Positions 28,199 through 42,452 of a stretch of DNA of 46,988 nucleotides are shown piece after piece. The notes under the pieces were generated by a model. The model was not told the DNA's origin, did not search any database, and worked only from the letters and a program-made list of their open reading frames with translations. A program made the translations under genes and the position numbers. This DNA comes from Deltaproteobacteria bacterium (GTDB lineage: Bacteria > Myxococcota_A > Polyangia > HGW-17 > SLPX01). The stretch covers positions 1 through 46,988 of the forward strand of contig JAGGXR010000037.1 of the NCBI GenBank assembly GCA_021162935.1, in the 5' to 3' direction. Within the stretch, counting starts at the first letter, position 1; each line of letters begins with the position of its first letter.

Positions 28199-29020
28199 TC
28201 ACGCAGGTGCGGACCAGCCGGTCCGTTCATAGGGCAAGGCGAGACCCTTGCGACGCAGCCAATGGACTCCATCATAGCGCACCACCACCAGGTCGATGGG
28301 CGCAGCAGAACGCGCCGGTCCAGGCTTGAATCGCTCAGCGGCAATCTGGACGGACACCAGGAACTCGACCAGTTGGGCCGCATCCTGAACCGGCATGGAA
28401 AAGTCCACCCGGACCGGGCCCCAGGCCGCCTCCTGCTCCAAATCGGAAATGACGGTCTTGGCCTGCTCCTGGCTCACCCCATTCTTGGTCATGATCTTTC
28501 GAAGCGAGGGGTGATGACCCCACCACAAGGTCCGAATGTCGTCATTGACGCCATCCCAGGTCAGGGCCAAATTTTCCTCTCCCTGACGCCGACGCACCAC
28601 GCCCTGGGGAAATCGTATCTGCCACTGCTCACCCTTGTAGGCGTCGGACGAATAGCCCGACACGAGCAGGTCCAGGCGACCGACCTTGCAGTCACATCCC
28701 TGCTCCTGCTTGACCGCCTCCTCGATGAACGCCTTGAGCGAACGGGCGACATCCTCGACGGTCCAGTTCGTGGCCGATTCGCCGACCTCGCCCGCGTACC
28801 CGTGCGTATGTGCAAACTCGTCAACGAGACTTTCCGTGGTCCTGCCTGCGGTCAGGCCAGCGCCCCACATCGTGCATACCACAGGCAGACGACCCACCTG
28901 GTTGATCTTCTGGTACGAATCGTACCTGTTCGTGCCCATTCGGCCCTTGCGGGTCGTCATGGCGCTGTCCGCGCCGATCACGATCCCGTCGGCCACTTTG
29001 AACGTCACCACCGTGGTCAT
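28199..29020 (-). CDS. Proteasome beta-like Ntn hydrolase
   Basis: A 273-residue protein that begins MTTVVTFKVADGIVIGADSA, which is the proteasome beta-subunit pattern. After removal of Met, Thr2 would be the nucleophile, Asp of GADSA matches Asp17, and Lys in YQKINQV matches Lys33. A Gly-rich turn MWGAGLTAG and a longer C-terminal half follow. The ATG at 29020 has GAGGA 7 bases upstream. The gene lies only 14 bp after the class II aldolase gene, so the two are co-transcribed. This is not the Anbu type, which starts differently. The substrate is unknown. A threonine peptidase linked to a BMC aldolase could serve in turnover, but that is unproved. Confidence 0.78.
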   Translation of the reverse strand: MTTVVTFKVADGIVIGADSAMTTRKGRMGTNRYDSYQKINQVGRLPVVCTMWGAGLTAGRTTESLVDEFAHTHGYAGEVGESATNWTVEDVARSLKAFIEEAVKQEQGCDCKVGRLDLLVSGYSSDAYKGEQWQIRFPQGVVRRRQGEENLALTWDGVNDDIRTLWWGHHPSLRKIMTKNGVSQEQAKTVISDLEQEAAWGPVRVDFSMPVQDAAQLVEFLVSVQIAAERFKPGPARSAAPIDLVVVRYDGVHWLRRKGLALPYERTGWSAPA

Positions 29021-29034
29021 GGCAGATCCTCGTT

Positions 29035-29898
29035 TCAGTTCCGTGGAGCCAACATGGCCAGAACGCGACGGACCACCTCCTCGACGATGCCCGACAGGTC
29101 ATCGCTCGATAGGTCGTCGCCCGATAGGTCGTCGCCCGATAGGTCATCGCCCGATAGGTCGTCGCCCGACAGGTCCTTGCCCGACAGGCTCTCGGACGAC
29201 AGCCTCCCACCCGACGGTTCCCCGTCCGTGCGGCAGGCGAGCACTTTCCCCGTCAGGCCGTAGGTCTGTCTGGCCCGATCCAGCTTGTCGAGCTGTGCCG
29301 CGCCAAGCGGCGCCCTGCTCCCCAACAGGCTCGTGTTCAGTGCAATCTGAGCGCTGTGCTCCAGGGTCTCCATTTTGAAGTAGGCTTCTTCGATGCTCGC
29401 CCCGATGGTCAACGCTCCATGGTTCGCAAGAAGCACCACGTCGGTGCGACGAATGAGTTCGGCAATGCTCGCCGCGACCTCCGGTGTACCGGGTGTGGCA
29501 TAGGGCGCCACGGGAACGCCCCCCAAAAAGAGCGCTGCTTCGGCCAGCAGACATTCATCCATGGGAATGCCGGCGGCAGCAAAGGAGGTCGCCGCCTTGG
29601 GATGAGCGTGGACCACGGCCCCTGCGTCGCTTCGGTTGCGGTACACTTCCAAGTGCATTCCCAGTTCACTCGTGGGCCGAGACCGACCGGAGGACAGGAC
29701 GTGGCCGTCCAGGTCCGTCACCACGAGATCCGCCTCGGACAAAAAACCCTTGCTCGACCCGGTGGGCGTGCTCAATATTCGGTCACCGGCCAGTCGAATG
29801 GAAATATTCCCGTCGTTCGCCGCCACGAGTCCACGCAGCCACATACGTCGGCCCACCTCCACGATGGCCTTTCTCGGTTCCAGACGATTGAGCATCAT
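29035..29898 (-). CDS. Class II aldolase with C-terminal encapsulation peptide
   Basis: A class II aldolase of the fuculose-/rhamnulose-1-phosphate type, 287 residues. The N-terminal 215 residues hold NDGNISIRL, PTGSSKGFL, catalytic Glu78 in SELGMHLEVYR, Zn-ligand His97/His99 in VVHAHPKAA, and His160 in LLANHGALTIG. It could cleave 6-deoxy-ketose-1-P to lactaldehyde plus DHAP, or run in reverse. The C-terminus adds eight tandem five-residue units (SGDDL-like, about 231-270), then a helix IVEEVVRRVLAMLAPRN that looks like a BMC encapsulation peptide. Similar aldolases belong to BMC loci of the PVM and SPU types. The start is ATG 29898 or ATG 29895; ribosome site weak. It is the first BMC enzyme after the EGF lipoprotein gene. 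Confidence 0.88.
   Translation of the reverse strand: MMLNRLEPRKAIVEVGRRMWLRGLVAANDGNISIRLAGDRILSTPTGSSKGFLSEADLVVTDLDGHVLSSGRSRPTSELGMHLEVYRNRSDAGAVVHAHPKAATSFAAAGIPMDECLLAEAALFLGGVPVAPYATPGTPEVAASIAELIRRTDVVLLANHGALTIGASIEEAYFKMETLEHSAQIALNTSLLGSRAPLGAAQLDKLDRARQTYGLTGKVLACRTDGEPSGGRLSSESLSGKDLSGDDLSGDDLSGDDLSGDDLSSDDLSGIVEEVVRRVLAMLAPRN
29105..29186 (-). repeat. 15-bp tandem repeats encoding the aldolase linker
   Basis: Repeats of a 15-bp unit (plus-strand form TCGCCCGATAGGTCG and close variants) at about 29105-29186 encode the repeated SGDDL units of the aldolase linker. Neighbouring copies are near-identical, which points to recent slippage expansion inside the gene. Confidence 0.8.
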
Positions 29899-29931
29899 AG
29901 ACTGGTTCTACAACAACTATGGTCCTAAAAT

Positions 29932-31137
29932 CTAGTTGTCTTCTCCAGTGATGCTGCGCAGGTCGCCGTAGCCCGTGATCACATCCACAATCCTCTGGCC
30001 GAAGAAGGGAGCCACTCGACTCGCAAACTCGGACCCTGGATGGGAGTCACCGCCACCGGCAGAATTTCCATCGAGCAGATAGAGCCCGCCCTCGGTCTCG
30101 AGTGCACGAAAATCCCACACGTAGATGTTGTCGTCCGGTTCGTCCCAGGTGTTGATCACCCACTCGAAAAAGTCTTTGGCTCTGTTGGCCTCGTCCTGAT
30201 TCGTCGCGCTTTCCACCAATGCGGCCCCTGTCCACACGATGAACCTCGTGTTCGAAAACGTGCGGAGCTTCTCCCGCAGCGCCATATACTGCAGCTTATA
30301 GTTCTCCTCCGACTTCCGCTCCGAGGAAATGTCGGGGTTCCCCGTGTCGGCCTGCACCGAACTGACAGGAAAACAGTGCTTGAACACGACCACTTTATAG
30401 CTCGAAGCGAGTTCGTCGATGGTCTCCAGTCCTTCGCTTGTCGCCTGACCTCCGTCTTGGACCCACAGATGCCAGTAGTCATAGGGATAATTCGCCCACG
30501 GATACGGATTGTCGGGATAGGCCTCCTCGGTGACATCATACGAAGTGGAGTGATCCTGGTTGTACTGGGTAAACCAGTCGGCCACGCCACCACCCCAGAT
30601 GACCCCACCGGTGGAATGATGCAGGAAAATCACTTTCGTATCCGGCCCGAAATCCGGCTTGGGCTGAGGGTCGCCTGTCTTCTCGCAGCGATCGCCCGTG
30701 TAGCCTTCGAGGCATTGGCACTGGAAGCCGTTGACCCCATCGATGCAGGTGCCGCCGTTTTCACAGGGATTCGGCGTGCAGTCGTCGATGTTCGTCTCAC
30801 AGGTATCTCCTGAAAAACCCGCAGCGCAGGTACAGGTGAACTGGTCACCATCTACGGCGCAGGTACCGCCATTTTTGCAAGGATTCGGATTGCACGGCCC
30901 GGCCTGGTTGTTGTTGGCGTTGGTGTTGTCGTTGGTGTTGTCGTTTGAGTTGTTGTTGATATTTTGGTTGTTCCCACCGCCGCCCGAATCATCGCCACAT
31001 GCAGTTCCAAACGCCGCCATCGCAAAGAGCACGGCGGCCAGGGCCGCCAAACGGGCTACTGCCAGGCACCCCTGCCGTACAAGATTTGGATTCGTCATTT
31101 GTTGGGTCGACCAGCGCTGTTCAAAATGTTTCACCAT
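29932..31137 (-). CDS. EGF-domain lipoprotein with SGNH-like domain
   Basis: A 401-residue lipoprotein. ATG 31137 has GGAGG 8 bases upstream. The signal (AVARLAALAAVLFAMAAFGTAC) ends in an acceptable lipobox. A low-complexity Asn/Asp stretch follows, then two EGF-like modules: CNPNPCKNGGTC...CTCAAGFSGDTC and CTPNPCENGGTC...CQCLEGYTGDRC. The C-terminal domain opens with VIFLHHSTGGVIWGGG and has WHLWVQDGGQ and a final GGGDSHPGSEFA, a pattern reminiscent of SGNH/GDSL hydrolases; catalysis is not proved. It is a surface protein placed between two blocks of BMC enzyme genes, which is unexpected. Confidence 0.82.
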   Translation of the reverse strand: MVKHFEQRWSTQQMTNPNLVRQGCLAVARLAALAAVLFAMAAFGTACGDDSGGGGNNQNINNNSNDNTNDNTNANNNQAGPCNPNPCKNGGTCAVDGDQFTCTCAAGFSGDTCETNIDDCTPNPCENGGTCIDGVNGFQCQCLEGYTGDRCEKTGDPQPKPDFGPDTKVIFLHHSTGGVIWGGGVADWFTQYNQDHSTSYDVTEEAYPDNPYPWANYPYDYWHLWVQDGGQATSEGLETIDELASSYKVVVFKHCFPVSSVQADTGNPDISSERKSEENYKLQYMALREKLRTFSNTRFIVWTGAALVESATNQDEANRAKDFFEWVINTWDEPDDNIYVWDFRALETEGGLYLLDGNSAGGGDSHPGSEFASRVAPFFGQRIVDVITGYGDLRSITGEDN

Positions 31138-31751
31138 GGCAATTCCCTCCGAAAGCAGATTTCTGTAATCAATGAAAGCGTACCATGACTCTGGATCAAT
31201 TCCCACCTCGTTGACGATTTCTACCTCGTTGAGCTTCGGCTCCTCGGACTGGCGTCGCCTAGTGGGGACGGGATCGGTCATTCATCTCCGCCGAGACTTG
31301 GGGCTGGGACTTGGCCTCCCTCGGACGGCTTGTGAGAACGCGTCCAGGAGGGCGCGTTCGGCTGCGCCTCGACAAAGCTGCCTTCATCGGGCCAAACGAA
31401 GTGAGGTGGATGGCCGAGAGAGGGACATGCGTCGTTTGACGTATCCGTAAGCGTTTAGGCGCGGCCCGAAGCGGCGCTTTGACGCCTCGGTCGTGCCAAG
31501 GCTCCCCGCCTGTTTCGTCTCGGCTTCGATGAATGAAATCGTGGTGCTGCTGCCATCGCCTCGCGATGGCAGTCTAGGGGGGCGTAGGCGATGGCAGTCT
31601 ACCTGTGGGGCGGAGGCGATGGAAGTCTAGGGGATGGAGCGTAGGCGATGGCAGTCTAAGGGATGGAGCGTAGACGATGGAACGTCTAAGGGATGGGGCG
31701 GAGGCGATGGCAGTCTCGAAAGGAAGCGGGTGAGGAAAAAAGAAAAGAGGA
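31138..31751. other. Gap between the EGF lipoprotein and the DeoC fusion
   Basis: 614 bp without a gene I can support. The left part (31138-31545) likely holds the promoter for the lipoprotein-aldolase-Ntn-kinase unit, but no clear -35/-10 pair is visible to me. The right part holds a hairpin at 31550-31572 and the 29-bp repeats at 31563-31715. Confidence 0.6.
31550..31715. repeat. Six-copy ~29-bp tandem repeat starting with a perfect hairpin
   Basis: A unit beginning GCGATGGCAGTCTA recurs at 31563, 31588, 31616, 31645, 31674 and 31704 (periods 25, 28, 29, 29 and 30 bp). The first copy is preceded by its exact inverse, giving a stem of 10 bp (CTGCCATCGC / GCGATGGCAG) with a 3-base loop. No U-tract follows, so it is not a classical terminator, but it sits just behind the DeoC gene and may end or stabilise the BMC transcript. 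Confidence 0.85.
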
Positions 31752-33668
31752 TCAGTAGGAGCCAGGACCAGCGTCCTCGCCCTTGGTGATGGCAACCGAA
31801 GCCGAAGCGCCGATACGGGTGGCGCCTGCGGCGACCATGGCACGCGCCGTTTCGATGTCTCGAATGCCACCTGAGGCCTTGACGCCCATATCCGGGCCCA
31901 CGGTCTGACGCATCAGGGCGATGTCATCCACAGTGGCGCCCCCGGGGCCAAACCCAGTGGAGGTTTTGACGAAATTGGCGCCGCCCAGCTTGGCGAGCAG
32001 ACAACCCTTGACCTTCTCCTCCTTGGACAGAAGCGCTGTCTCCAAAATGACCTTGACCAGGGCCTGACCACGAGCCGCGTTGACCACAGCCTCGATGTCG
32101 CGCCGCACCAGTTCGTCATCTCCCGACTTGAGGGCGCCCACGTTGATCACCATGTCGATCTCTTCGGCGCCGTTCGCAATGGCGTCCCTGGTTTCGATCG
32201 CCTTGGTGGTGGGCGTGGTGGCACCCAGCGGGAACCCGATGACCGTGCAGACCTTGACGATGCTGCCCTTGAGTTCACGCGCAGCCAAGGGGACCCAACT
32301 CGGGTTGATGCAGACCGACGCAAAACCGTACTGCCGCGCCTCCTGGCAGAGCTTGCGGATGTCCGCGTCAGTGGTTTCCGGCTTGAGCATCGTATGATCG
32401 ATGTACCGAGCGATGGACTTGTCCATGACCTTGGTCCCCAGGCTGGATGCAATCCGATCGGCCCCGCCGTTGAACAGGGCGGCCACGGCGGGTTCGTTCT
32501 TCTCGGCGCATTGTCCACATCCAGTACACTTGTCCGGGTCGCCCTCGCATGGCCCAGTCGCAAAGGGAACTGGCTGGTAGCCGAGTTTCTGCGCGGCGGC
32601 AGCCAGAGCCGGCGACTCAGAGTCAGTTGTGCTGGCGCCATTGGACGCGGCCGATGCAGTCGCAGAAACTCTTGAAAGCGACGACTGGGCATTGGAGACC
32701 GCCGGAACAGAACGTGATGGAGTCGCGCTATTTCCCACGTTCGATCCCACACCGGTCACCTGAGCCGCGACCTGTTCGATGGCAACCATGCGAACGCCGA
32801 GCTCCTGGAGGTCGGACACCATGGCATCCACCCGCCGCCGAAATCCTGCTGGCGCCTCTGGATAGTCGGCCCGAAGCCCATACATGGAATCAGTGGCAGC
32901 CACTACCAGTTTACCCCGCATCAAAGCATAGATGGGCATGAGCGATGCTGCGCTGTCCCCATCGAGATGGGCGATTTTCGAAGCGGTGCTGAGCGTCAGA
33001 TTCGGCAGCACGACCGCATCGGCCGCCTCGACTAGGTCGCGCAGCCCGAAGGTGACCTCGGCAGGCAGCACATTCGCCGAAGGACAAACCCTCCGAATGG
33101 CGGGCTGGTCCAAAACCTTGCGCGCCGAAGGCGACAGGAACAGGTCCATGGCAGCATCGGTCTGAGCAAGAGACCCGAGCATGGCGAATACCTGGTCCAG
33201 CTTGCCATCACCCGCGGTCAGAACCACCAAAACCCTGGGGCCCGCACCAGAACCACCCCGAGCGACGTCCGAGCCACCTGCCACATGGGCCGCTGCCCCC
33301 GGTCTGCCAGCCGACCCAATGGTCACGGCTTCGATGGAGCCATCCGTTCGACCAACCGTGTAGGGCACCCGGTACCCAGCCCCACCGCCGAGGCGTGGAC
33401 GCGTGCCAAGTCCGGTGCCGAGACCAGTGCCAAGTCCGGTACCGAGACCAGTGCCCAGGCCCGTCCCAAGGGCCGTGCCTGCGGCAGCCGACGATTCATT
33501 CGTTCCCGTTCCAGCCGGCCGGCCAGACAGGGTCACGCCGGTCTCTTCAACGCGCAACCGCTGGCCACGACCTGCTCCACCTTCAGGGCCCAAACGATCG
33601 ATCGCCCCGCCACCAAGGCGATCCATGACCTGATCAACGATCTGCTGCACAAGCTTGTCCGTATCCAT
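31752..33668 (-). CDS. deoC: Encapsulated flavoprotein-like / deoxyribose-phosphate aldolase fusion
   Basis: A 638-residue fusion. Residues 1-20 are an encapsulation-peptide-like helix ([16 protein letters not shown]). Residues 66-89 are a GTGL tandem-repeat linker. Residues 144-305 form an HFCD/flavoprotein-like domain ([15 protein letters not shown] ... [16 protein letters not shown]). A low-complexity spacer follows, then four Cys (374, 381, 384, 387; pattern C-x6-C-x2-C-x2-C) that could hold an iron-sulfur cluster. The class I DERA domain runs from 418 to 638: [10 protein letters not shown], Asp505 in EIDMVIN, Schiff-base Lys568 in FVKTSTGF, Lys597 in VKASGGIR and a C-terminal Tyr638. DERA cleaves deoxyribose-5-P to acetaldehyde plus glyceraldehyde-3-P. 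GGAGG lies 6 bases before ATG 33668. It is the last gene of the main BMC unit. Confidence 0.92.
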
Positions 33669-33710: not shown

Positions 33711-33995
33711 TCAACCGTCGAGTCGTACCGCTTTGCCACGGACCTCGTCCACGAACCCCACGATACTCAAATCCACCGGAACCAGTGGGCCAAGCGGAAT
33801 GGCCGCTTCTTTCTTTCCCGTCAGAAACACGAAGTCGCCCACGCCGGCGCACCCCACCACGTCCGCAGCGACCGCAGGCCTACCCAACTCGTGGCCCTGC
33901 TCGTCGAGAAGCTGTACGACCATCAGCTTGATGCCGGTCAGGCTCTCGACCTTGACCGTCGCGACTATCTGTCCAACCACTTTGCCAAGCTGCAT
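33711..33995 (-). CDS. BMC-P pentameric vertex protein
   Basis: A 94-residue EutN/CcmL-family vertex protein: MQLGKVVGQIVATVKVESL, KLMVVQLL, ADVVGCAGVGDFVFL and a closing VGFVDEV. Pentamers cap the vertices of the BMC shell. Its ATG overlaps the stop of the rpiB-like gene by one base (TGATG), with GGAGA upstream. It is one of three BMC-P genes here. Confidence 0.95.
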   Translation of the reverse strand: MQLGKVVGQIVATVKVESLTGIKLMVVQLLDEQGHELGRPAVAADVVGCAGVGDFVFLTGKKEAAIPLGPLVPVDLSIVGFVDEVRGKAVRLDG

Positions 33996-34495
33996 CAGCT
34001 TCTCCGCTGGTTCGAACCCACCACCACACCGTCTCCGGTCACCTCGTGGATCTTGGCCACCCGGCGCGCATGCCGCCCACCGGCGAAGTCGGTCTGCAGA
34101 AACTCGTCCACAATCCGTTCGGCCAGCCCCGTGCCCAGCATGCGCCCACCCAAGGTGAGCATGTTCGCATCATTGTGCTCACGCGCCGAATGGGCGGAAA
34201 ATTCATTCCAACAAGGCGCCGACCGGATCCCCGGCACCCGATTCGCCACCATCGAGGAGGCCACGCCCACCGCATCGATCATGATGCCGCGCACGAGGCG
34301 GCCGGCCGCCAAGGCCTCGGCCACGGCACGTGCGACGAGAAAGGCCACGTCGGGATAGTCCACGGCATCCGTGCTGTGGGTGCCGAAATCCTTGACCTCG
34401 TAGTCCTTATTCGAAAGGTACCCAACCAGATGCTCCTTGAGGGGAAACCCGCCGTGATCCGACCCGATGTACACGAGAAATCGCCGATCACTCAC
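33995..34495 (-). CDS. rpiB: RpiB-like sugar-phosphate isomerase with altered active site
   Basis: A 166-residue protein of the RpiB/LacAB family, whose members isomerise aldose and ketose phosphates. It keeps GSDHGGFPLKE, DYPD, the His of SAREHNDANML and GGRHARRV. The segment that carries the catalytic Cys in E. coli RpiB (ICGTGVG) reads IDAVGVA here, so Asp74 stands where Cys66 would be and the GTG turn is lost. Some RpiB use another acid elsewhere, so activity cannot be excluded. GTG 34495 overlaps the TPI stop, with AAGGAGG 6 bases before. The placement between TPI and BMC-P suggests a role with the shell cargo; the substrate is unknown. Confidence 0.88.
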   Translation of the reverse strand: MSDRRFLVYIGSDHGGFPLKEHLVGYLSNKDYEVKDFGTHSTDAVDYPDVAFLVARAVAEALAAGRLVRGIMIDAVGVASSMVANRVPGIRSAPCWNEFSAHSAREHNDANMLTLGGRMLGTGLAERIVDEFLQTDFAGGRHARRVAKIHEVTGDGVVVGSNQRRS

Positions 34496-35397
34496 GACCC
34501 ACCTCCTTGCGCCGACAGGTTCTGTGCCCGGGCCGCGCCCGCCTCCACGATGGCAGCGAAACGCTTGGGGCTCAAACTGGCGCCACCCACGAGCAGGCCG
34601 CCGACCTGGTCGATGGCCAGGATATCCGCGGCGCTCTCTTCGGTCACGCTCCCACCGTACAGCACGCGCAACCTCGACGCCCAGGCGGCCCCGAACTCTT
34701 CGCCCGCTACCGTTCGAATGAAGGCGCAGGCCTCGTCGATCTGAGCCGGCTCAGCCACGCGCCCCGTGCCGATGGCCCACACGGGCTCATAGGCAATGGC
34801 CATGCGACCGGGTGTCACGCCCCGCAGGGCCAACCCAGCCAGGGCCGTCTGGACCTGGACCCGGAGCACCCGAAACGTAGAGCCGTTCGTTCGGTCGTCG
34901 AGGCCTTCGCCCACGCACAGGACGGCAGACAGGCCACTTGCCACGGCGCGATGAAGCTTTGCCTTGACCTGGTCGTGGGTCTCACCGGCGGCACGTCGCT
35001 CCGAATGGCCCACCAGGGTCCAGGTGGCGCCGGCTGCCAAAACCAGATCTGCGGAGACCTCGCCCGTATGAGCACCCGACGGCTCCCAATGCAGATCCTG
35101 GCTGCCCACCTCCGTCGAGGCGCCAGCGCCCGCCAGGGCAGACCGCACCGACGAAATGAGCGTGGCAGGCGGAAACACCAGCGTGTCCACCCCGGTCTGC
35201 GGGGCCAAGGCAAGATGCGACGCAAACTCGACCAAGGCCTCGCCCGCACCGCCACCAGGCGCGTTCATCTTCCAGTTGCCGGCCACGAGCAACGCAGGCT
35301 GCCACTCGTCACGGCTGCGGTCCGGCGTCTGGCCGAGCCGATCCGCCACGCGGCGCAGCACCACGTTCACAAGCTGATCCAGTTCCAGCTCCGCCAT
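34492..35397 (-). CDS. tpiA: Triosephosphate isomerase with N-terminal encapsulation peptide
   Basis: TPI interconverts glyceraldehyde-3-P and DHAP. The catalytic core is complete: NWKM (Asn41, Lys43), His131 in LVGHSERR, Glu204 in YEPVWAIGTG and YGGSV. Typical TPI is about 250 residues; this one has 301, with an added N-terminus that starts MAELELDQLVNVVLRRVADR, an amphipathic helix like the encapsulation peptides of the neighbouring ALDH and DeoC. ATG 35397 is preceded by GGATGGAG; the frame further upstream is discarded. It overlaps rpiB by 4 bases. It is most simply read as a BMC cargo enzyme that equilibrates the triose phosphates of the two aldolases. Confidence 0.93.
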   Translation of the reverse strand: MAELELDQLVNVVLRRVADRLGQTPDRSRDEWQPALLVAGNWKMNAPGGGAGEALVEFASHLALAPQTGVDTLVFPPATLISSVRSALAGAGASTEVGSQDLHWEPSGAHTGEVSADLVLAAGATWTLVGHSERRAAGETHDQVKAKLHRAVASGLSAVLCVGEGLDDRTNGSTFRVLRVQVQTALAGLALRGVTPGRMAIAYEPVWAIGTGRVAEPAQIDEACAFIRTVAGEEFGAAWASRLRVLYGGSVTEESAADILAIDQVGGLLVGGASLSPKRFAAIVEAGAARAQNLSAQGGGS

Positions 35398-35620
35398 GAC
35401 TCCATCCTCGATCGACCAACGCCACCAGGTGCGCAACCGGCACCGGGGCCGCTATCAGATCACACGTTACTCCGGTCGCTCCGGTTGGTCCGGTCGCTCC
35501 GGCTCCGCTCCGAATCACTTCGCGTCCATGTGGACCTTGGGATCCCGTTGGATCCGTCGCCAAACCTATAGGCCAGTCACCAGACCAATAGGCCCCAACG
35601 GCCGTGCTCGGACGACGTCC

Positions 35621-35929
35621 TTACTCGACGTCGTCCCGATCCGGCAGCCGAACCTGACGCCCCGACATCTGCACGTAGTCCACCACGCCCACGGCCAGCG
35701 CATCCACCGACCCCTTGGGCAACCCCATCAGAGACCGAATGCTGTTGCCCTCCCGAAGAACGAGCACATGGTCCGACTCGCCCGCCTGGCACATGTCCAC
35801 GACGAGCAGGCTGGACCCTACATCCCGACCCCATTGGTCCACGGGCTGCACCACCAAGAGCTTGCGATCCTGGTAGGAGCCTTCCTTGATCGTGGAGACC
35901 ACGTTTGCGACCACACGAGCCAGCAGCAA
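35621..35929 (-). CDS. BMC-P pentameric vertex protein
   Basis: A 102-residue EutN/CcmL-family vertex protein (LLARVVANVVSTIKEGSYQ, KLLVVQPVD, DMCQAGESDHVLVL, VGVVDYVQM). I set the start at TTG 35929: AAGGAG is 7 bases upstream and the product then starts M-LLARVV like its paralogues. A GTG two codons earlier would have a spacing of only one base. The C-terminus is a charged tail (RLPDRDDVE). A 223-bp stretch without a gene separates it from tpiA. Confidence 0.93.
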   Translation of the reverse strand: MLLARVVANVVSTIKEGSYQDRKLLVVQPVDQWGRDVGSSLLVVDMCQAGESDHVLVLREGNSIRSLMGLPKGSVDALAVGVVDYVQMSGRQVRLPDRDDVE

Positions 35930-36055
35930 CTCCACACTCCTTGCCGGCCAACCGGCAGCGCCCGAAGATACGGCGATGTGCGAGCAGCGACCGCCCCCGG
36001 CCGATGCCCACCCACCACGCGAACCATCCGAACCATCAGGTTCGGACGTGACGAG

Positions 36056-36352
36056 CTACTTGCCCTTGCCGCGTCCTTGTCCCGGCTGGGGAAGGATCGA
36101 CTCGACCTCTTCGTGCGGCGCCGGGATCACGTGCACGGACACCAGATCGCCCACCCGACGGGCCGACTCCGCACCGGCCTCGACAGCCGCCTTGACCGCG
36201 CCCACGTCGCCGCGCACCATGACAGTGACATAGCCGCCGCCCACGTGCTCCTTGCCGATGAGGGTCACCTTGGCCGCCTTGACCATGGCATCCGCTGCCT
36301 CGATGCTTCCCACCAATCCTCTGGTCTCGACCATACCCAGGGCTTCTTTCAT
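36056..36352 (-). CDS. BMC-H hexameric shell protein
   Basis: A canonical single-domain BMC (pfam00936) protein of 98 residues: [54 protein letters not shown] and [11 protein letters not shown]. The pore loop reads HVGGGY, where PduA has KIGSGL. Hexamers tile the shell facets. AGGAGG lies 8 bases before ATG 36352. It is the only BMC-H gene in the window. Confidence 0.96.
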
Positions 36353-36496: not shown

Positions 36497-37078
36497 TTAC
36501 AAAATTTTATCCAAAATCTGAGGATGCGGCGACGGTATCACCGTGGTGCCAAGAATCAACGCCTCATCCGCCAGAGCCTTGACACCCGCCTCCACCGCGG
36601 CCCGAACCGCCGCCACGTGCCCGGTCAGCATAACGAACGCCTTGCCCGCAAGGCCACGGCCGAGCCGTACCTCGATGAGTCGAACATCGGCGGTCTTGAC
36701 CGCCTCGTCAGCGGCGCGCACCGCCGATGCCATGGTGAAGGTCTCGATCACACCCAGGGCCTCGATCGTTTCCACGTCCACCATGCCCCCCAACGCGGGA
36801 ATCACGTCTGGGTGCACCGACGGGATGACCGTAAAATCGGTCATGGTCTCGCCGGCAACGGCGACACCAACCTCCACCGCGGTACGGACCGCGGCCACGA
36901 GTCCAGTGGCCATGACCAAAAACTTTCCCGGACAGGTGGGCATGGCAGTTTCGATCCGCACATCAGACGTCTTGGCCATCACGTCGGCCACCTCGACGCC
37001 CCGGGCCACGCTTCGGGTCTCCACGTACCCGACCGCGAGCACTCCGTCCGATTCATGCCACTGCGCCTGGGCGCTCAT
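36497..37078 (-). CDS. PduT-type tandem-domain BMC-T shell protein
   Basis: A tandem BMC protein of 193 residues with two BMC folds: one from about 11-95 (VGYVETRSVARGVEVADVM ... HPDVIP), one from about 105-190 (ALGVIETFTMASAVRAADEA ... HPQILDKIL). The first has Cys49 in MPTCPGKFLVM, matching the CPGKF motif of PduT whose three Cys in a trimer bind a 4Fe-4S cluster in the pore. The start is ATG 37078 with AGGAGG upstream; the open frame further upstream is not coding. It lies 22 bp after pduS, the likely electron-transfer partner. Confidence 0.94.
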   Translation of the reverse strand: MSAQAQWHESDGVLAVGYVETRSVARGVEVADVMAKTSDVRIETAMPTCPGKFLVMATGLVAAVRTAVEVGVAVAGETMTDFTVIPSVHPDVIPALGGMVDVETIEALGVIETFTMASAVRAADEAVKTADVRLIEVRLGRGLAGKAFVMLTGHVAAVRAAVEAGVKALADEALILGTTVIPSPHPQILDKIL

Positions 37079-37100
37079 GCCGCTCCTCCTGCCCGACGGA

Positions 37101-38489
37101 TCATGCCGCCCCTCCTGCCCTGTGGATCTCGATGAATCCACTCTCGATACGCTCGATACGACCAGTGATGCTCGCGTGCAGGGCCGCGCTGATCCGCCCC
37201 GTGGGTTCGGCCAGCACCTGGCCGACGCGTACCTGCTGGCCTTCTTCCACCACGACTTTGGGCGCCGCGCCCGATCCCTGGCGGATCGCAATCCGGACCA
37301 CACCGGGGTCCAGCCGACCCACGAGTTCCAGGTGGGCCACCAGATCGGACAGCCCCAGCCTGGCGGTCAGCCTGGGCACGGGCACCTGCTTGATGCGCCA
37401 GTAGGACGACGGCGTCGATTCCGTTTTGGGCTGAAACACGAAACCGGATTCGCGAAGACGCCGCTTCACCTCGATGTTCATGCCCCGAGGGTCCAAGCCC
37501 ATGGGACAGCCGTATTCGGTGCAGAGCCCACACTCACAACAGAGCATGGCCCCCGCATAGGCTTCCACGTCTCCGGTCAGACCCGATGCCATGCCCCGCA
37601 TGAGCCGATCGGGAAAGATACGATGGCCCAATAGATTCCTCGGGCAGACCTCGGTGCACTCGCCGCATGCACAGCAGGCAGCCCGGGCGAGATGGAGCGC
37701 TGACAGAGGATCCACGCGCCGCGCCCGCACCACGTGATGGTCGTCGGGTAGCACGAGCAGACCCGAGGTCGTCTTCGAGACCGAATCGCCTGGACCGGCC
37801 AGCCGCCCCATCATGGGGCCACCCGTGACCAAGGCGGGCCGTTCCAGGTCCGTTCCTCCTGCGGCTGTCACCACATCCGACAACCTCGTACCCACGGGCA
37901 CCTGGTAAATGCCTGGGCTCCGAACGAAACCGGTCACCGTGACGAATCGATCCGTGGAGGGGCGCGCCGACCGGACCGCCGCGCTCACCGCCGCAAGACT
38001 CGCCACGTTGCTCACCACGACGTCCTGAGACAGGGGGAGCGCCGTCTCGGAAATGGTGCGACCGAGCACCTGCTGCACGAGGGTAAACTCGTCTCCTGCG
38101 GGGTACACATTCGGAAGGCGCGCCACGGAGAGACGCGTCCCGGACGGGTCCGCCCGATGGATCGCGGCCTCGGCGCTGGCGACCACGTCCGGGTAGGCTG
38201 CCTTGACGCCCAAATAGCCACGTCCGGCGCCAGTGGCTTCCATGGCGAGAACGAGGCCGTCTACCACCTCGTCCGCATGGCGGAGGACGAGCGCCTTGTC
38301 GGACCACAACAGGGGCTCACATTCGGCACCGTTCGCAATCACTGAATCCACCTGGGCGTCGAGTTTGACGTGGGTGGGAAACCCGCCCCCGCCCATGCCC
38401 ACGATGCCGGCAGCAGACACCGCAGCGCGAATCGACTCGGCCGAAGTCGCCTTGGAAATCGTGGTCTGTGTTGCGGACGCTGTGGTCAC
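37101..38489 (-). CDS. pduS: PduS/RnfC-like electron-transfer protein
   Basis: A PduS-type flavin/Fe-S protein of about 462 residues (S. enterica PduS has about 450). The RnfC-like N-terminal dinucleotide/FMN region has GIVGMGGGGFPTHVKL, GAECEPLL and YPAGDEFTL. A SLBB-like middle part has VTVTGFVRSPGIYQVPVGTRL. Two ferredoxin-like motifs follow, CCACGECTEVCPRNL and CCECGLCTEYGCPMG. PduS oxidises NADH and passes electrons to acceptors, including the Fe-S pore of PduT. GTG 38489 has GGAG 9 bases upstream; GTG 38495 and TTG 38504 are also in frame. Confidence 0.92.
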   Translation of the reverse strand: MTTASATQTTISKATSAESIRAAVSAAGIVGMGGGGFPTHVKLDAQVDSVIANGAECEPLLWSDKALVLRHADEVVDGLVLAMEATGAGRGYLGVKAAYPDVVASAEAAIHRADPSGTRLSVARLPNVYPAGDEFTLVQQVLGRTISETALPLSQDVVVSNVASLAAVSAAVRSARPSTDRFVTVTGFVRSPGIYQVPVGTRLSDVVTAAGGTDLERPALVTGGPMMGRLAGPGDSVSKTTSGLLVLPDDHHVVRARRVDPLSALHLARAACCACGECTEVCPRNLLGHRIFPDRLMRGMASGLTGDVEAYAGAMLCCECGLCTEYGCPMGLDPRGMNIEVKRRLRESGFVFQPKTESTPSSYWRIKQVPVPRLTARLGLSDLVAHLELVGRLDPGVVRIAIRQGSGAAPKVVVEEGQQVRVGQVLAEPTGRISAALHASITGRIERIESGFIEIHRAGGAA

Positions 38490-38594
38490 TCTCACTTGCT
38501 CCAAAAAAATCCGTGTCTCTCGTCATGGGCGCATGATCGGCGTCCGACTGTCAGCGGACTGCCGGCCAACCGTCACACGACGGTCGCGCTGCCG

Positions 38595-40274
38595 TCACAC
38601 GATGCGGAAAGCACCTGCCAACACGCAACGTCGCTGCCTCGTGAAGGTACGGGCCGAGGTGAGCCCTTCACCCGTCGGTCCAGCAATGCTCAGGGTCGTG
38701 AATCCTTCTCCGCCAAAACCCAGCCCACCGTAGGACGGCGCATTCTTGACGAAGATGGTCGTCTCGATCTCTCGAGCCATCCGACTCATGCGGCTCACGT
38801 TCTCCGAATGCATGCAGGCCGTGTGGCGGAATCCGTGCTCCACTGCTTTGGCCCAAGCCAGTCCCTCGTCGAGGTCCCGAACCCGGACCATGGGCAGAAA
38901 CGGCATGAGCTGTTCGGCCTGCACCAGGGGATGCGAAATGTCGGGCACCTCGGCGAGCACGAGCCGCGCGTTGGGATGCGCCGACACGCCGATCTCGGAC
39001 AGGAGCACCGAGGCGTCCCGGCCCACCATGTCCTTCTTCGGCATGGGATAGCCGGACCCAGAACTGTCGATGCATCGTTCGGTGAGCCGGTCCAGGTCGC
39101 GACCTCGCACCTCGACAGCCCCGTAACGCAGCATCTCTTCCTTGAGACGATCCGCCACGTTGTCGAAGACCAGCAGAACCTTCTCGGCGATGCAGAGCAG
39201 GCCGTTGTCGAAGCTGGCGCCATCGACCACCGCTCGGGCCGCCTTGGTGATATTCGCCGTGTCGTCCACGAGCACGGGCGCGTTGCCCGGACCGGCCCCA
39301 ACGACGCGCTTGCCCGAACTCATGGCCGCATTGACCACTTCTTCTCCGCCCGTCACCATGAGCAACCGAATCGTGGGATGAACCATGAGCGCCTGGGCCG
39401 ATTCGCGGGACGGTCGCTCCACCGAACAAAGCAGGTTCTGCGGCCCACCGGCCTCGACAATGGCCTCATTCATGAGTCGAATCGTCTCGTTCGTTACCCG
39501 CTTGGCGGCTGGGTGTGGATTGAACACCGCAGCGTTGCCCGCGGCCACGAAACTGATGCCGTTGTTCACCACGGTCGAAGCCGGATTCGTAGAAGGCGTG
39601 ATGGCGCCTACGACGCCGAAGGGCGCCGGTTCGACCAGAGTCAGACCATCGTCGCCCGTGTAGGCCTTCGGCTGGAGGTCTTCGGTCCCTGGGGTCGCCC
39701 GTGCGGCGAGTAAATTCTTCTGCACCTTGGAGGACACCCGCCCCATGCCCGTTTCCTCGACGGTCAGGGCGGCCAAAGGTTCGGCATACTCCTCGGCCTT
39801 CCTCCTCATGGCGTCGATAAACTTCTGCCTCGCGGCTAGGCTCATGCCGCCCAGCTCTCGATAGGCCGCTTCGGCCGCGGACACGGCGGACTCCATATCG
39901 GCAAACAGGCCTGTAGCCGAAGAAGAAGTGGGTCGCGTCACAGCACCCGAACTCGAAGTCGCCGCTGTTGCGGTCGCGCCAACGACCGCCCGGCCGTTGC
40001 CCGACGCGGTCAGGCCGTTGCCCGACGCGGTCAGGCCGTTGCCCGACGCGGTCAGGCCGTTGCCCGACGGAGCCAGGCCGTTGCCCGACGGAGCCAGGCC
40101 ATTGCCCGACGAAGCCAGACCATTGCCCACCGGAGCCAGGCCATTGCCCACCGGGATGGACGCCGATCCGTTGCTTCCGTTCGTCACGGCAACGCCCCCG
40201 ACGCGCTGTTGGACCTGCTGCACCACCTGGTCCACGAGTCTTTGAATCTGATCGTCTGTCACCTGAACCTTCAT
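38595..40274 (-). CDS. Encapsulated acylating aldehyde dehydrogenase (PduP/EutE type)
   Basis: A CoA-acylating aldehyde dehydrogenase of 559 residues that turns acetaldehyde or lactaldehyde into acyl-CoA with NAD+ and CoA. Residues 1-27 are an encapsulation peptide (VTDDQIQRLVDQVVQQ). Residues 42-95 are a linker of about eight 7-residue units (SGNGLxx). The catalytic domain follows: GVVGAITPSTNPASTVVNN, LLMVTGGEEVVNAAM, GAGPGNAPVLV, and catalytic Cys361 in DNGLLCIAEK. It ends TRQRRCVLAGAFRIV as PduP does. The start ATG 40274 is supported by the encapsulation peptide; a GAGG motif lies 10 bases upstream. Confidence 0.96.
   Translation of the reverse strand: MKVQVTDDQIQRLVDQVVQQVQQRVGGVAVTNGSNGSASIPVGNGLAPVGNGLASSGNGLAPSGNGLAPSGNGLTASGNGLTASGNGLTASGNGRAVVGATATAATSSSGAVTRPTSSSATGLFADMESAVSAAEAAYRELGGMSLAARQKFIDAMRRKAEEYAEPLAALTVEETGMGRVSSKVQKNLLAARATPGTEDLQPKAYTGDDGLTLVEPAPFGVVGAITPSTNPASTVVNNGISFVAAGNAAVFNPHPAAKRVTNETIRLMNEAIVEAGGPQNLLCSVERPSRESAQALMVHPTIRLLMVTGGEEVVNAAMSSGKRVVGAGPGNAPVLVDDTANITKAARAVVDGASFDNGLLCIAEKVLLVFDNVADRLKEEMLRYGAVEVRGRDLDRLTERCIDSSGSGYPMPKKDMVGRDASVLLSEIGVSAHPNARLVLAEVPDISHPLVQAEQLMPFLPMVRVRDLDEGLAWAKAVEHGFRHTACMHSENVSRMSRMAREIETTIFVKNAPSYGGLGFGGEGFTTLSIAGPTGEGLTSARTFTRQRRCVLAGAFRIV
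40001..40152 (-). repeat. 21-bp tandem repeats encoding the ALDH linker
   Basis: Near-identical 21-bp units (plus-strand form CGTTGCCCGACGCGGTCAGGC and variants) at about 40001-40152 encode the repeated SGNGLxx linker of the aldehyde dehydrogenase. Adjacent units are identical or differ at few bases, which suggests recent expansion by slippage. Confidence 0.85.
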
Positions 40275-40399: not shown

Positions 40400-40693
40400 T
40401 CACGACTTGGCAAAGGTGCGTCCCCCATCCATTTCCACGTAGTCCACGATGGCCATGACCGTGGCGTCCACGGGCAGATCTTTGGTTCTCTGGGTCAACC
40501 GTGCCGAAGACCCGGCCACGTAAAGGACCACCTCGCCCTCGCCGGCGCCAACCGCATCCACCGCAACCATCGGGTTGCCCGTCGATTCGAGGGTCCGCAT
40601 ATCCACCGGTTCGACGATGAGCAGCGTCAGGCCCACGAGTTTTTCGCTCTTCTGTGTGCTCACCACTGTCCCAACGACCCGAGCAAGCTGCAT
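40400..40693 (-). CDS. BMC-P pentameric vertex protein
   Basis: A 97-residue EutN/CcmL-type vertex protein: MQLARVVGTVVSTQKSEKL, LTLLIVEPVDM, AVGAGEGEVVLYVAGSSA and MAIVDYVEMDGG. The start is ATG 40693, with GGAGG upstream. The gene follows the flavoprotein-like gene by 24 bp. It is the first BMC-P gene to be transcribed in the locus. Confidence 0.95.
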   Translation of the reverse strand: MQLARVVGTVVSTQKSEKLVGLTLLIVEPVDMRTLESTGNPMVAVDAVGAGEGEVVLYVAGSSARLTQRTKDLPVDATVMAIVDYVEMDGGRTFAKS

Positions 40694-40717
40694 CGTCGCC
40701 TCCTTGCGCGACCACGC

Positions 40718-41671
40718 CTAACGGCCTGGTCGCAGCTCCACACCCAACTCCCTGGCGCGATCTCGTGCCAGGGGGGTCACCACTGTCTGGGGCGCAAGGG
40801 TCACCCTGAGGACCCCTGCCGCAAACACCTCATCGATGTCTTTTTCCGTCACCAAGCCGCCACGGGCTCGACTCGCCGAATCGGTCGTCGCCGCCAGCGT
40901 TGCCAGGGGCCGGACCACGTCATCGACGGCCACCGCCTCCAGGCCCAACAGCGCCAGATCCCGCCACAACGACTGGGCCCTGCGCTCCAACCCGCTCGCC
41001 CCGACCGTCTTGGCGCGGGCCGGCCGCCCATCGGCCGTCCGTCCGCCGTCCGTTCGCCCGTCACCGAGGCGCCCGTCGGGACCAACGGATCCCAATGCTA
41101 TCCGCTGCAAGCCTGGGAGGTCCTCATGGCCCAGCACAAGCACAGGCCTGGCGGCTGCAAGGCCTTCGAGCAACATTGCGGCAAAGGGATCCGAATCGTC
41201 CGCACCGGCCGCTTTCTTGGCCTGCTCCCAACCCAAGGTCCCCACGTAAAGCAGGTCCGCGTGCCCCACCGACTCCATGGCGGATTGCACTGAATCAGGC
41301 TGACTGCCTGGGTCCACGATCTGCACCGAGGCCTCCACGTTCGCCCCACGAAGCAGCCCTTCGACAGTGCCGGCCACCTCGGGACAAGACAGAATCGTTT
41401 GCTGCGCTCCAAACCGCGCCACCAAGGCCATGGCCCGCACCACAGAATCGAGCCTGCGCGCTGCCGTCCCCAAGAACCAGACCACTCTGGTCGGTTCGAG
41501 CGGGGCGTCCGATCCGTTCGGACCGCCCGAACCTCGGGCGGAACCAACCAAACCGGCGTTTCCCGTCGAAACAGAGGACGCCCCTGTCTGCCCCGCGAAG
41601 ACGCGGTTCAGAACCGTCTCCACGAGCACCGGAACCAATGCATCCAAGGTCTTGTCCTGCGAATCAGACAC
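40718..41671 (-). CDS. BMC-associated flavoprotein-like protein with encapsulation peptide
   Basis: A 317-residue protein. Residues 9-27 (TLDALVPVLVETVLNRVFAG) form an encapsulation-peptide-like helix. A Rossmann-like region (about 49-185) with VVWFLGTAARRLDSVV, LLYVGTLGW and ARPVLVLGHEDLP resembles the flavoprotein-like domain fused to DeoC in this locus. A low-complexity GRT/DGR stretch follows (about 196-220). The C-terminal part ends with VVTPLARDRARELGVEL, a helical motif that recurs in BMC-associated proteins. GTG 41671 has GAGG 5 bases upstream. Substrate and cofactor are not known; FMN binding is an inference from fold similarity. Confidence 0.78.
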   Translation of the reverse strand: MSDSQDKTLDALVPVLVETVLNRVFAGQTGASSVSTGNAGLVGSARGSGGPNGSDAPLEPTRVVWFLGTAARRLDSVVRAMALVARFGAQQTILSCPEVAGTVEGLLRGANVEASVQIVDPGSQPDSVQSAMESVGHADLLYVGTLGWEQAKKAAGADDSDPFAAMLLEGLAAARPVLVLGHEDLPGLQRIALGSVGPDGRLGDGRTDGGRTADGRPARAKTVGASGLERRAQSLWRDLALLGLEAVAVDDVVRPLATLAATTDSASRARGGLVTEKDIDEVFAAGVLRVTLAPQTVVTPLARDRARELGVELRPGR

Positions 41672-41765
41672 GTTTGCCTCGAAATGACCTCATCAAAAGC
41701 ACTCAATCGCGCCGGATCGCCGAAGCCTCATCGAAAAGCGTCGCGATCACCGAACAGCCAGAGCC

Positions 41766-42452
41766 TCATCGAAACTGGACGCCCGACTGGGTGAAATCAC
41801 AGTAGGGCCGCTGCCCAGTGACTGTCACATCCTCCCGAATGGGGCAGGCTTCGTTCGCGCAGAGCCCGCAGATCGCCTCGACCACGTCCACCAAGTCGCC
41901 GTCACGCACTCCAGCAGCGTTGCCCTCGTCCAGATCCACGTGCATCTCCGTCCGAAAATCTGGACTCACCCGCACGATCACGTCTTCGAACATCACCTTG
42001 CGACCACTCACCGCTCGGGCAAGCACGCGCTGGCCATGCTGCAGACCGGTCACATCCGCATCCTTACTATGCAGATGAATGTGGCGCGCCGCGCAGATAA
42101 AGCCTTCGTCGATCTGGACGGCGCCCTTGGGTCCGATCAAGAAACCGCCTGGCGTGCCCACGGTGTTTCCAGACAGCCGAACCGGCAGGTTCACCCCGAT
42201 GACGAACCCGTCGGTGATGGAAAGCTCGGCCTGAGTCGCGTCGCGAGCCGGGCCCAGCACACGCACCCCGCGCAGCGATCCCTTTGGCCCCACCACCTCG
42301 ACCGTCTCCGTGCAGGCGAACTGGCCAGGCTGGGAAAGGTCGCGCCAGGGAGTCAGTCGATGTCCCGCCCCAAACAGCGCCTCGACGTGCTCCTGGCTCA
42401 GGTGCACATGTCTGGCAGAAAGAGCCACGGGGATCCGAAAGGGCTGCTCCAT
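41766..42452 (-). CDS. pduL: PduL-type phosphotransacylase
   Basis: PduL converts acyl-CoA plus phosphate to acyl-phosphate plus CoA, recycling CoA inside the compartment. Zinc-ligand motifs are visible: ALSARHVHLS, FICAARHIHLHSKDAD, and EMHVDLDEGNAAG. Other marks are TETVEVVGPKGSL, ITDGFVIG and GPKGAVQIDEGF. I choose ATG 42452 (MEQPFRIPVALSARHV), with GAGG 8 bases upstream, giving 228 residues. In-frame ATG 42485 is possible. The upstream part of the frame (from 42584) lacks a clear encapsulation-peptide helix, unlike the other cargo enzymes. It is the first gene of the main BMC unit. Confidence 0.95.
   Translation of the reverse strand: MEQPFRIPVALSARHVHLSQEHVEALFGAGHRLTPWRDLSQPGQFACTETVEVVGPKGSLRGVRVLGPARDATQAELSITDGFVIGVNLPVRLSGNTVGTPGGFLIGPKGAVQIDEGFICAARHIHLHSKDADVTGLQHGQRVLARAVSGRKVMFEDVIVRVSPDFRTEMHVDLDEGNAAGVRDGDLVDVVEAICGLCANEACPIREDVTVTGQRPYCDFTQSGVQFR

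What the first reader, a model, noticed from the sequence alone, without database searches (positions are those of the whole stretch)
28199..42452. Sugar-phosphate-utilizing type microcompartment locus with extra cargo
The sequence shows one BMC-H, one BMC-T, three BMC-P, PduL, an acylating ALDH, PduS, DeoC, an RpiB homologue and a class II aldolase in one leftward region. The DeoC plus RpiB pairing is the hallmark of the SPU BMC class, whose physiology is little studied. This one adds an encapsulated TPI, a flavoprotein-like protein and a co-transcribed Ntn hydrolase. It may therefore be a distinct subtype for combined use of deoxyribose-5-P and a deoxyhexulose-1-P.
Basis: partly seen in the sequence, partly recalled or inferred. 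Interest (0 to 1): 0.85.

Follow-up and report, generated by a model that had tools for sequence, protein, structure and literature searches.

The report
Sugar-phosphate microcompartment with redox-decorated aldolase
This is a gene cluster for a protein-shelled bacterial organelle of a known but little-tested type, thought to break down DNA-derived sugar; its key enzyme is fused to a flavin-type domain and an iron-sulphur-like motif, and its partner 'isomerase' lacks the usual catalytic cysteine, which makes the organelle's real chemistry testable.

Summary
The locus is real: an SPU-type (sugar phosphate utilisation) microcompartment with PduL, acylating ALDH, PduS, one BMC-H, a PduT-like BMC-T, three BMC-P, TPI, RpiB homologue and DeoC. 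Eight of 13 genomes of the order carry such loci.

Corrections. The 'flavoprotein' is the front half of DeoC: one 638-residue chain (targeting helix, flavoprotein fold, four-cysteine motif, aldolase); a diverged paralogue is separate. TPI is not extra; it was noted in SPU in 2014. The Ntn hydrolase is not conserved beside BMC genes. The class II aldolase probably belongs (C-terminal targeting-like helix; directly after DeoC in a Guaymas MAG), but 8 of 10 fusion-bearing genomes lack it in the BMC locus. Its substrate is unproven.

New: all 10 aligned SPU RpiB homologues have Asp, and all 10 non-compartment RpiBs of the order Cys, at the catalytic position. An RpiB-DeoC fusion in another SPU architecture also has Asp.

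Verdict: new variant of a known kind. Boldest reading: the compartment RpiB opens the deoxyribose-5-phosphate ring instead of isomerising pentoses.

The parts
41766..42584 (-). PduL phosphotransacylase; longest ORF, likely start ATG at 42452
   Evidence: PF06130 6e-71; NF011652 244 bits, cut-off 209
40718..41671 (-). Flv2: 317-aa protein with N-terminal helix, diverged paralogue of the DeoC-fused flavoprotein domain
   Evidence: no Pfam/NCBIfam match; hhalign A1 vs A2 probability 90%; structure model poor, pLDDT 49.6
40400..40693 (-). BMC-P shell pentamer 1
   Evidence: PF03319 2e-30
38595..40274 (-). Acylating aldehyde dehydrogenase, N-terminal targeting helix plus tandem-repeat linker, LCIAEK active-site motif
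   Evidence: PRK15398 636 bits, cut-off 403; helix ranks 1 of 544 by hydrophobic moment; repeats 39988-40149
37101..38504 (-). PduS/RnfC-like oxidoreductase with two CxxCxxC motifs
   Evidence: PF01512, Fer4_17, SLBB, RnfC_N; motifs at residues 277 and 322
36497..37303 (-). BMC-T, PduT-like with CPGK motif; longest ORF, plausible ATG at 37078
   Evidence: two BMC domains; nearest solved 3nwg and PduT-like 3pac/3n79, the Cys of CPGK aligned with that of 3pac
36056..36352 (-). BMC-H shell hexamer; the relatives read in full have two BMC-H genes, the window one
   Evidence: PF00936 4e-29
35621..35935 (-). BMC-P shell pentamer 2
   Evidence: PF03319 1e-17
34492..35436 (-). Triosephosphate isomerase with N-terminal targeting helix; second TPI of the genome
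   Evidence: PF00121 3e-73; helix ranks 1 of 299; other copy G000:C134
33995..34495 (-). RpiB paralogue, catalytic Cys-Gly-Thr-Gly replaced by Asp-Ala-Val-Gly
   Evidence: PF02502 2e-51; alignments
33711..33995 (-). BMC-P shell pentamer 3
   Evidence: PF03319 2e-22
31752..33668 (-). Fusion: targeting helix, HFCD-type flavoprotein domain, Cys4 (Fer4-like) motif, DeoC aldolase (638 aa)
   Evidence: TIGR00126 293 bits, cut-off 117; fold Z up to 18.6 to EpiD/Hal3/PPC decarboxylase types; Cys motif at residue 374; PF00037 9.5e-4 and PF02441 5.5e-3, both below cut-off
29932..31281 (-). EGF-domain lipoprotein-like gene, probably an insertion, not part of the compartment
   Evidence: PF00008; nothing between DeoC and aldolase in L069
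29035..29898 (-). Class II aldolase with C-terminal repeat linker and targeting-like helix
   Evidence: PF00596 3e-53; C-terminal helix ranks 1 of 272; repeats 29089-29188; homologue directly after DeoC in L069
28199..29020 (-). Ntn-hydrolase-like protein, co-directional; not shown to belong
   Evidence: no family match; homologues in 6 other genomes of 377, no BMC genes in held flanks

Best explanation
An SPU-type metabolosome operon of a Myxococcota MAG, in a variant whose signature aldolase carries what look like redox modules. Inferred working: deoxyribose-5-phosphate is cleaved inside the shell by DeoC to acetaldehyde and glyceraldehyde-3-P. The tagged TPI converts glyceraldehyde-3-P to DHAP, which pulls the reversible aldol reaction. 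The EutE-type ALDH and PduL turn acetaldehyde into acetyl-phosphate and recycle CoA. No alcohol dehydrogenase turned up among the scanned locus genes, so NADH is probably re-oxidised by PduS, with electrons leaving through the PduT-like BMC-T. The flavoprotein domain and Cys4 motif on DeoC would bind flavin and an Fe-S cluster in the same electron path (least certain step). A tail-tagged class II aldolase feeds a second sugar-1-phosphate into the same core. Shown by sequence: gene content, order, fusion, conservation, active-site motifs, targeting-like helices on four cargo enzymes. Inferred: all fluxes, cofactors and substrates.
For: Families. Apart from the number and place of the BMC-H genes, the order PduL-Flv2-P-ALDH-PduS-T-P-TPI-RpiB-P-FlvDeoC is repeated in four order loci held in full (L026, L027, L029, L030), with partial loci L025 and L028 consistent, and in L069. 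Fusion with invariant CxxCGxC in 8 of 8 aligned sequences, plus L069 and G213. Flavoprotein fold: Foldseek E 4e-8; the first 37 VIA rows, HFCD types by title or recall, have Z 14.3-18.6, the next row 11.4. Motifs of the DeoC lysines and aspartate, ALDH cysteine and class II aldolase metal ligands present (residue roles recalled). BMC-T nearest to 3nwg and PduT types. PduS binds FMN and two [4Fe-4S] and interacts with PduT (PMC2982820, passages read). DeoB and acetate kinase in the own genome.
Against: No experiment. Pfam Flavoprotein matches 1 of 8 and Fer4 3 of 8 members, each below cut-off in the window protein; flavin or cluster binding is not shown. In 14 of the 28 other DeoC ORFs read the fourth Cys of the motif is Ser, and one more has lost a middle Cys, which fits a zinc site or a three-Cys site as well as a cluster. 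The class II aldolase is in the BMC locus of 1 of 8 SPU genomes of the order and not found in G213. The L069 aldolase tail and the Flv2 N-terminus did not stand out by hydrophobic moment, and non-tag stretches of RpiB and PduS ranked as high as some tags.
Confidence: 0.62

Rival explanations
1. The locus is a main-locus form of the HO (Haliangium-type) compartment, with SPU enzymes gathered beside it, rather than a true SPU.
For: The catalogue says HO ALDH is closest to SPU5 and SPU7, that all these loci have the BMC-P triplet, and that some HO genomes carry an EP-tagged DeoC elsewhere (PMC8217296, passages). Here DeoCs with an N-terminal helix and Cys motif occur in many Myxococcota, and class II aldolases beside BMC-P genes in 5 of 29 loci read, with only about 1.5 kb of flank held.
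Against: RpiB is in the same operon, the SPU hallmark. Asp-type RpiB above 260 bits was found in 3 of 377 phylum genomes, all with SPU loci; two lower Asp-type hits are an RpiB-DeoC fusion locus and a contig-end fragment of the same genus. The BMC-T is PduT-like, not the H. ochraceum type (3nwg 154 bits, 5dih 69 bits).
Confidence: 0.2
2. One reading: deoxyribose-5-P plus a deoxyhexulose-1-P (fuculose or rhamnulose), with lactaldehyde processed by the same ALDH.
For: Class II aldolase with C-terminal targeting-like helix in the operon and a homologue in L069. PVM and GRM5 use PF00596 aldolases on such sugars (PMC8217296, passages).
Against: FucA scores are far below cut-off. No fucose or rhamnose isomerase or kinase among the scanned locus genes. 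The catalogue places SPU ALDHs with EUT types that process acetaldehyde.
Confidence: 0.15
3. Dual-substrate with a shared aldehyde: the class II aldolase cleaves 5-deoxyribulose-1-P (from 5'-deoxyadenosine) to DHAP plus acetaldehyde, so both aldolases feed one acetaldehyde core and TPI merges the trioses.
For: Nearest solved relatives are 6voq and DrdA 6btd/6btg. DrdA makes DHAP plus acetaldehyde (PMC6079011, passages). MtnA in the own genome and 10 others of the 13.
Against: Bit scores of 6btd (90) and FucA 4c24 (82) are close. MtnA is also present in order members without this aldolase and lies on another contig.
Confidence: 0.25
4. The RpiB homologue is an ordinary ribose-5-phosphate isomerase with Asp as base, so the compartment also handles ribose-5-P.
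For: The own genome has no other PF02502 match. Mycobacterium RpiB uses Glu-75 as base (PMC3755991, passages). 'SPU-like' loci pair RpiB with a class II aldolase and no DeoC (PMC4207490, passage), so RpiB need not serve DeoC.
Against: Of the 8 SPU genomes of the order, 7 also have a separate Cys-type RpiB. The Thr proposed to shuttle protons is lost too.
Confidence: 0.37

Closest known systems
SPU metabolosomes (Axen 2014 PMC4207490; Sutter 2021 PMC8217296)
   Same: DeoC and RpiB with ALDH and shell genes; PduL in most of the 2014 loci, PduS and TPI in Atribacteria
   Different: DeoC fused to flavoprotein and Cys4 modules; tail-tagged class II aldolase; RpiB lacking the catalytic Cys (none of these mentioned in the passages read)
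SPU-like loci (Latescibacteria, PMC4207490 passage)
   Same: ALDH, PduL, PduS, RpiB-like protein and a class II aldolase
   Different: class II aldolase instead of DeoC; here both are present
HO compartment (Haliangium ochraceum)
   Same: BMC-P triplet; EP-tagged DeoC elsewhere in some HO genomes; satellites with two BMC-P and an aldolase
   Different: RpiB and DeoC in the main operon here; PduT-like BMC-T
ACI compartment (Acidobacteria)
   Same: PF00596 class II aldolase with C-terminal EP, BMC-P triplet (PMC8217296, passage)
   Different: no DeoC/RpiB named for ACI in the passage; its ALDH is in a satellite locus
Pdu metabolosome PduS-PduT pair
   Same: PduS-like oxidoreductase and CPGK-bearing BMC-T
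   Different: no cobalamin enzyme among the scanned locus genes
HFCD flavoproteins (EpiD, Hal3, PPC decarboxylase, UbiX)
   Same: predicted fold of the domain ahead of DeoC
   Different: fused to an aldolase and a targeting helix; 9-20% identity in the matching VIA rows

Membership tests
SPU BMC | PF01791 DeoC-type aldolase in the locus | tested here: met
   PF01791 7e-15 and TIGR00126 293 bits, above cut-offs
SPU BMC | PF02502 RpiB-type protein in the locus | tested here: met
   174 bits, cut-off 24.7; catalytic Cys not conserved
SPU BMC | shell genes of hexamer, trimer and pentamer type plus AldDH | tested here: met
SPU BMC | assignment to one of subtypes SPU1-7 by HMM colours and gene order | not testable with these tools
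   tables are in supplements, no look-ups allowed
SPU BMC | encapsulation of cargo and use of deoxyribose-5-P | not testable with these tools
   needs experiment
HO BMC | double-layer BMC-T (T-dp) | tested here: inconclusive
   nearest chains are PduT types; H. ochraceum 5dih/5dii score lower; no T-dp profile was run
HO BMC | main locus without DeoC (implied by the catalogue passage, not stated as a definition) | tested here: not met
   DeoC is in the operon
HFCD flavoprotein (PF02441) | Pfam gathering score | tested here: not met
   16.7 bits against 22.7
HFCD flavoprotein (PF02441) | fold | tested here: met
   Z up to 18.6 over 154 residues; block pLDDT of residues 1-160 is 72-94
HFCD flavoprotein (PF02441) | bound FMN | not testable with these tools
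   needs protein
RpiB isomerase | catalytic Cys of the CGTG motif | tested here: not met
   Asp in 10 of 10 aligned SPU copies; whether Asp is an equivalent base is open
L-fuculose-1-P aldolase | NCBIfam FucA equivalog cut-off | tested here: not met
   79.5 bits against 400 (TIGR01086), 123.7 against 250 (NF040649)

The most novel reading that the evidence does not exclude
The RpiB homologue of SPU compartments is not a pentose isomerase but a deoxyribose-5-phosphate ring-opening enzyme that hands the open-chain aldehyde to DeoC. It keeps the ring-opening His and the Asp-His and Arg residues, and it has lost the Cys and Thr used for 1,2-isomerisation, a reaction that a 2-deoxy sugar cannot undergo. 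This would explain why RpiB and DeoC are paired in all seven SPU subtypes of the catalogue and sometimes fused. In this order DeoC is in addition wired to a flavin/Fe-S electron path that discharges NADH through the shell. (Odds lowered from 0.20 to 0.17 on checking: 'SPU-like' loci have RpiB with a class II aldolase and no DeoC.)
Probability: 0.17. Interest if true: 0.78.

Novelty: new variant of a known kind. Interest (0 to 1): 0.55.

Why it matters
SPU is one of the commonest compartment types by catalogue count (more than 280 loci in 26 phyla, PMC8217296, passage), and I met no report of an experiment on it in the passages read. The RpiB observation questions the standing explanation of half of its signature pair and can be settled with one purified protein. 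The fused flavoprotein-Cys4-DeoC gives a concrete handle on how an SPU shell without an alcohol dehydrogenase gene in its locus might dispose of electrons.

Tried and rejected
Ntn hydrolase as compartment component: relatives in 6 other genomes of 377 had no BMC gene in the held flanks of 3.8-12 kb stretches. EGF gene as component: missing at that place in L069. TPI as an extra that links the class II aldolase: TPI is present in order loci that lack that aldolase. Flv2 structure: model too poor to search. PDB look-up of the Ntn protein: nothing significant. The fusion on plasmid records: 258 records match, 0 cover 80% of the query; RpiB on plasmid records was searched to find other phyla and did not help. 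Promoter and terminator scan: counts no higher than in shuffles (1 against a mean of 2.2, 10 against a mean of 10.0). tRNA and Rfam: none. SPU RpiBs of other phyla could not be reached. The Cys motif as a universal SPU feature was dropped: the RpiB-DeoC fusion of L179 lacks it. A rate for the Cys motif among tagged DeoCs was dropped too: the 28 ORFs were found with a profile that contains the motif.


Full report
What is there. The window lies in a 5.1-Mb genome of 168 contigs. Its named relatives are MAGs titled Myxococcota or Deltaproteobacteria. On the minus strand from about 42.5 kb to 28.2 kb runs a set of co-directional genes: PduL, a 317-residue protein without family match, BMC-P, acylating ALDH, PduS, BMC-T, BMC-H, BMC-P, TPI, RpiB, BMC-P, a 638-residue protein ending in DeoC, an EGF-domain protein, a class II aldolase and an Ntn-hydrolase-like protein.

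Conservation. In the order, 8 of 13 genomes carry the flavoprotein-DeoC fusion. Four loci held in full repeat the order PduL-Flv2-P-ALDH-PduS-T-P-TPI-RpiB-P-DeoC with two BMC-H genes at varying places; the window has one BMC-H, and a further single BMC-H gene lies on another contig. Two partial loci agree. A Guaymas Basin MAG (L069, QMME01000036.1; its kinship to the order was not given) has the same operon and the class II aldolase directly after DeoC; the two aldolases are 49% identical in the alignment. A scan of 84,980 species genomes with one exact peptide pattern from the flavoprotein domain found 8 loci, a lower bound. Within the order the aldolase was found in 3 of 13 genomes. In G009 and G010 it lies outside BMC genes on the stretches held and ends in a CxECGxC tail. 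G213, a fusion-bearing genome of the same class, shows none. So 2 of 10 fusion loci (window, L069) have the aldolase.

Targeting helices. By hydrophobic moment over 16 residues, the N-terminal helices of ALDH (rank 1 of 544), TPI (1 of 299) and the DeoC fusion (6 of 623) and the C-terminal helix of the class II aldolase (1 of 272) stand out. The N-terminus of Flv2 (49 of 302) and the C-terminus of the L069 aldolase (78 of 269) do not, although their sequences look similar by eye. RpiB and PduS also have high-ranking C-terminal stretches (1 of 151 and 2 of 452), the RpiB one in its conserved core, so this measure alone proves nothing. The two non-BMC aldolases L086 and L087 have no such C-terminal peak (ranks 33 and 14) (all). 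The linkers of ALDH, DeoC and the class II aldolase are encoded by short tandem repeats.

The fusion. The domain ahead of DeoC was modelled from 8 sequences: the first 160 residues have block pLDDT of 72-94, most of the rest is low. Foldseek finds UbiX, EpiD, Hal3 and PPC decarboxylase (E from 4e-8). The first 37 VIA-align rows, flavoproteins of this type (titles; dipicolinate synthase B by recall), have Z 14.3-18.6; the next row, another protein, has 11.4. In the window protein Pfam Flavoprotein reaches only 16.7 bits (cut-off 22.7), and Fer4 on the Cys motif 19.3 bits (cut-off 21.1); 1 and 3 of 8 members match at E<=1. CxxCGxC is invariant in 8 of 8. A profile of domain plus motif matched 34 of 377 phylum genomes; G000, G005 and G213 match nearly the whole profile, the rest only its later part with the Cys motif. 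I read 28 of the 30 loci returned (L037-L064; the other two are the known G005 and G000): all are DeoC ORFs with a Cys-rich stretch before the aldolase, 13 with four Cys, one (L050) with a middle Cys replaced by Ser, and 14 with CTGCGWS, Ser at the fourth place. Since the profile contains the motif, this shows recurrence, not a rate. 27 of the 28 lack the flavoprotein domain and show a helix like the targeting tags by eye. So the Cys motif recurs on tagged DeoCs of the phylum, and the flavoprotein domain is the local addition. Flv2 looks like a paralogue of it. Flavoproteins as recurrent but unexplained BMC-locus genes were noted in 2014 (PMC4207490, passages).

RpiB. Against solved RpiBs the ICGTG motif aligns with IDAVG. 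A Pfam search, not biased towards SPU, gave 18 PF02502 matches in 11 of 13 order genomes. The 8 in BMC loci all have Asp, the 10 outside all have Cys. With L069 and L085 added, 10 of 10 SPU copies have Asp followed two residues later by Val or Ile instead of Thr; 5 of these also have Thr for the conserved Asn after the His. A phylum search with the SPU profile gave matches in 288 of 377 genomes: 3 above 260 bits, all SPU, the next at 180 bits. Of the 30 loci fetched, 5 have Asp (the 3 SPU; L174; L162) and 25 have Cys; the other matches were not read. L174/L179 is a separate compartment locus with an RpiB-DeoC fusion, BMC-H, three BMC-P, ALDH and BMC-T, and Ala instead of Thr. L162/L180 is the same genus but cut by the contig end, so its context is unknown; it could be an Asp-type RpiB outside a BMC. 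In LacAB the equivalent Cys is essential for isomerisation, the Thr is proposed to move protons, and a His opens the ring (PMC3755991, passages). The His and the DHG and GGRH motifs are kept. Since 2-deoxyribose-5-P has no C2 hydroxyl, it cannot undergo this isomerisation (general chemistry). Ring opening for DeoC is therefore my boldest reading. Against it: the window's genome has no other PF02502 protein (RpiA could not be looked for), and 'SPU-like' loci have RpiB with a class II aldolase and no DeoC (PMC4207490, passage). An unusual but ordinary isomerase remains likelier.

Electron path. PduS has both cysteine motifs. The BMC-T is closest to 3nwg and PduT types and has CPGK, as have all six relatives printed. 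PduS was shown to bind FMN and two [4Fe-4S] and to interact with PduT, with electron export proposed (PMC2982820, passages). No alcohol dehydrogenase was found among the scanned locus genes.

Second aldolase. Every NCBIfam score shown is far below cut-off (best 25 of 32). The best solved matches are 6voq and 6btd (90 bits), then 6vop (87) and FucA types (82 and less). DrdA (6btd) makes DHAP and acetaldehyde (PMC6079011, passages). In the phylum 142 of 377 genomes have a class II aldolase at E<=1e-30; 5 of 29 loci read have BMC-P genes beside it, with short flanks held. The catalogue describes HO satellites with two BMC-P and 'an aldolase', and a C-terminal EP on the class II aldolase of ACI (PMC8217296, passages).

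Literature. From the listings I opened the two papers that define SPU (PMC4207490, PMC8217296; passages only). The passages read do not mention a DeoC-flavoprotein fusion, the Cys motif or the RpiB substitution. Supplements were not available, so the catalogue may hold this gene order. HGW-Deltaproteobacteria-22 (PHAZ01000030.1), which has the same kind of locus, may well have been in it; I could not check.

Noticed in passing
window 29089-29188, 33403-33470, 39988-40149: The linkers between enzyme and targeting helix of three cargo proteins are encoded by short tandem repeats (15, 12/24 and 21 bp), which suggests that linkers lengthen by repeat expansion.
   Followed up: partly
L179 8517-10166: RpiB-DeoC fusion protein in a small SPU locus of another family of the same class, also with Asp at the RpiB catalytic position; Axen 2014 reported such a fusion in Marinimicrobia.
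   Followed up: partly
L023 8534-9091 (G000:C86): A single satellite BMC-H gene elsewhere in the genome, perhaps the second BMC-H that the relatives keep in the operon; the only strong acetate kinase match lies on the same contig about 13.5 kb away.
   Followed up: no
L086 6862-8190, L087 4485-5297: Class II aldolases outside BMC loci that end in a CxECGxC tail resembling the motif ahead of DeoC.
   Followed up: no
L115, L116, L118, L122: Class II aldolases whose C-termini carry CxxCxxC; in L115, L116 and L118 it is followed by a targeting-like helix by eye, the same pairing of Cys motif and helix as on DeoC but at the other end of an unrelated enzyme.
   Followed up: no
window 40718-40790: C-terminus of Flv2 has a weak E3-binding-domain-like match (PF02817, E 0.12, 3 of 6 members), perhaps a docking motif.
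   Followed up: no
window 24046-26305: AIR-carboxylase-like and nickel-insertion genes in tandem, like LarB/LarC (names recalled).
   Followed up: no
window 31563-31716: 29/59-bp tandem repeat in the gap between DeoC and the EGF gene, next to the presumed insertion.
   Followed up: no
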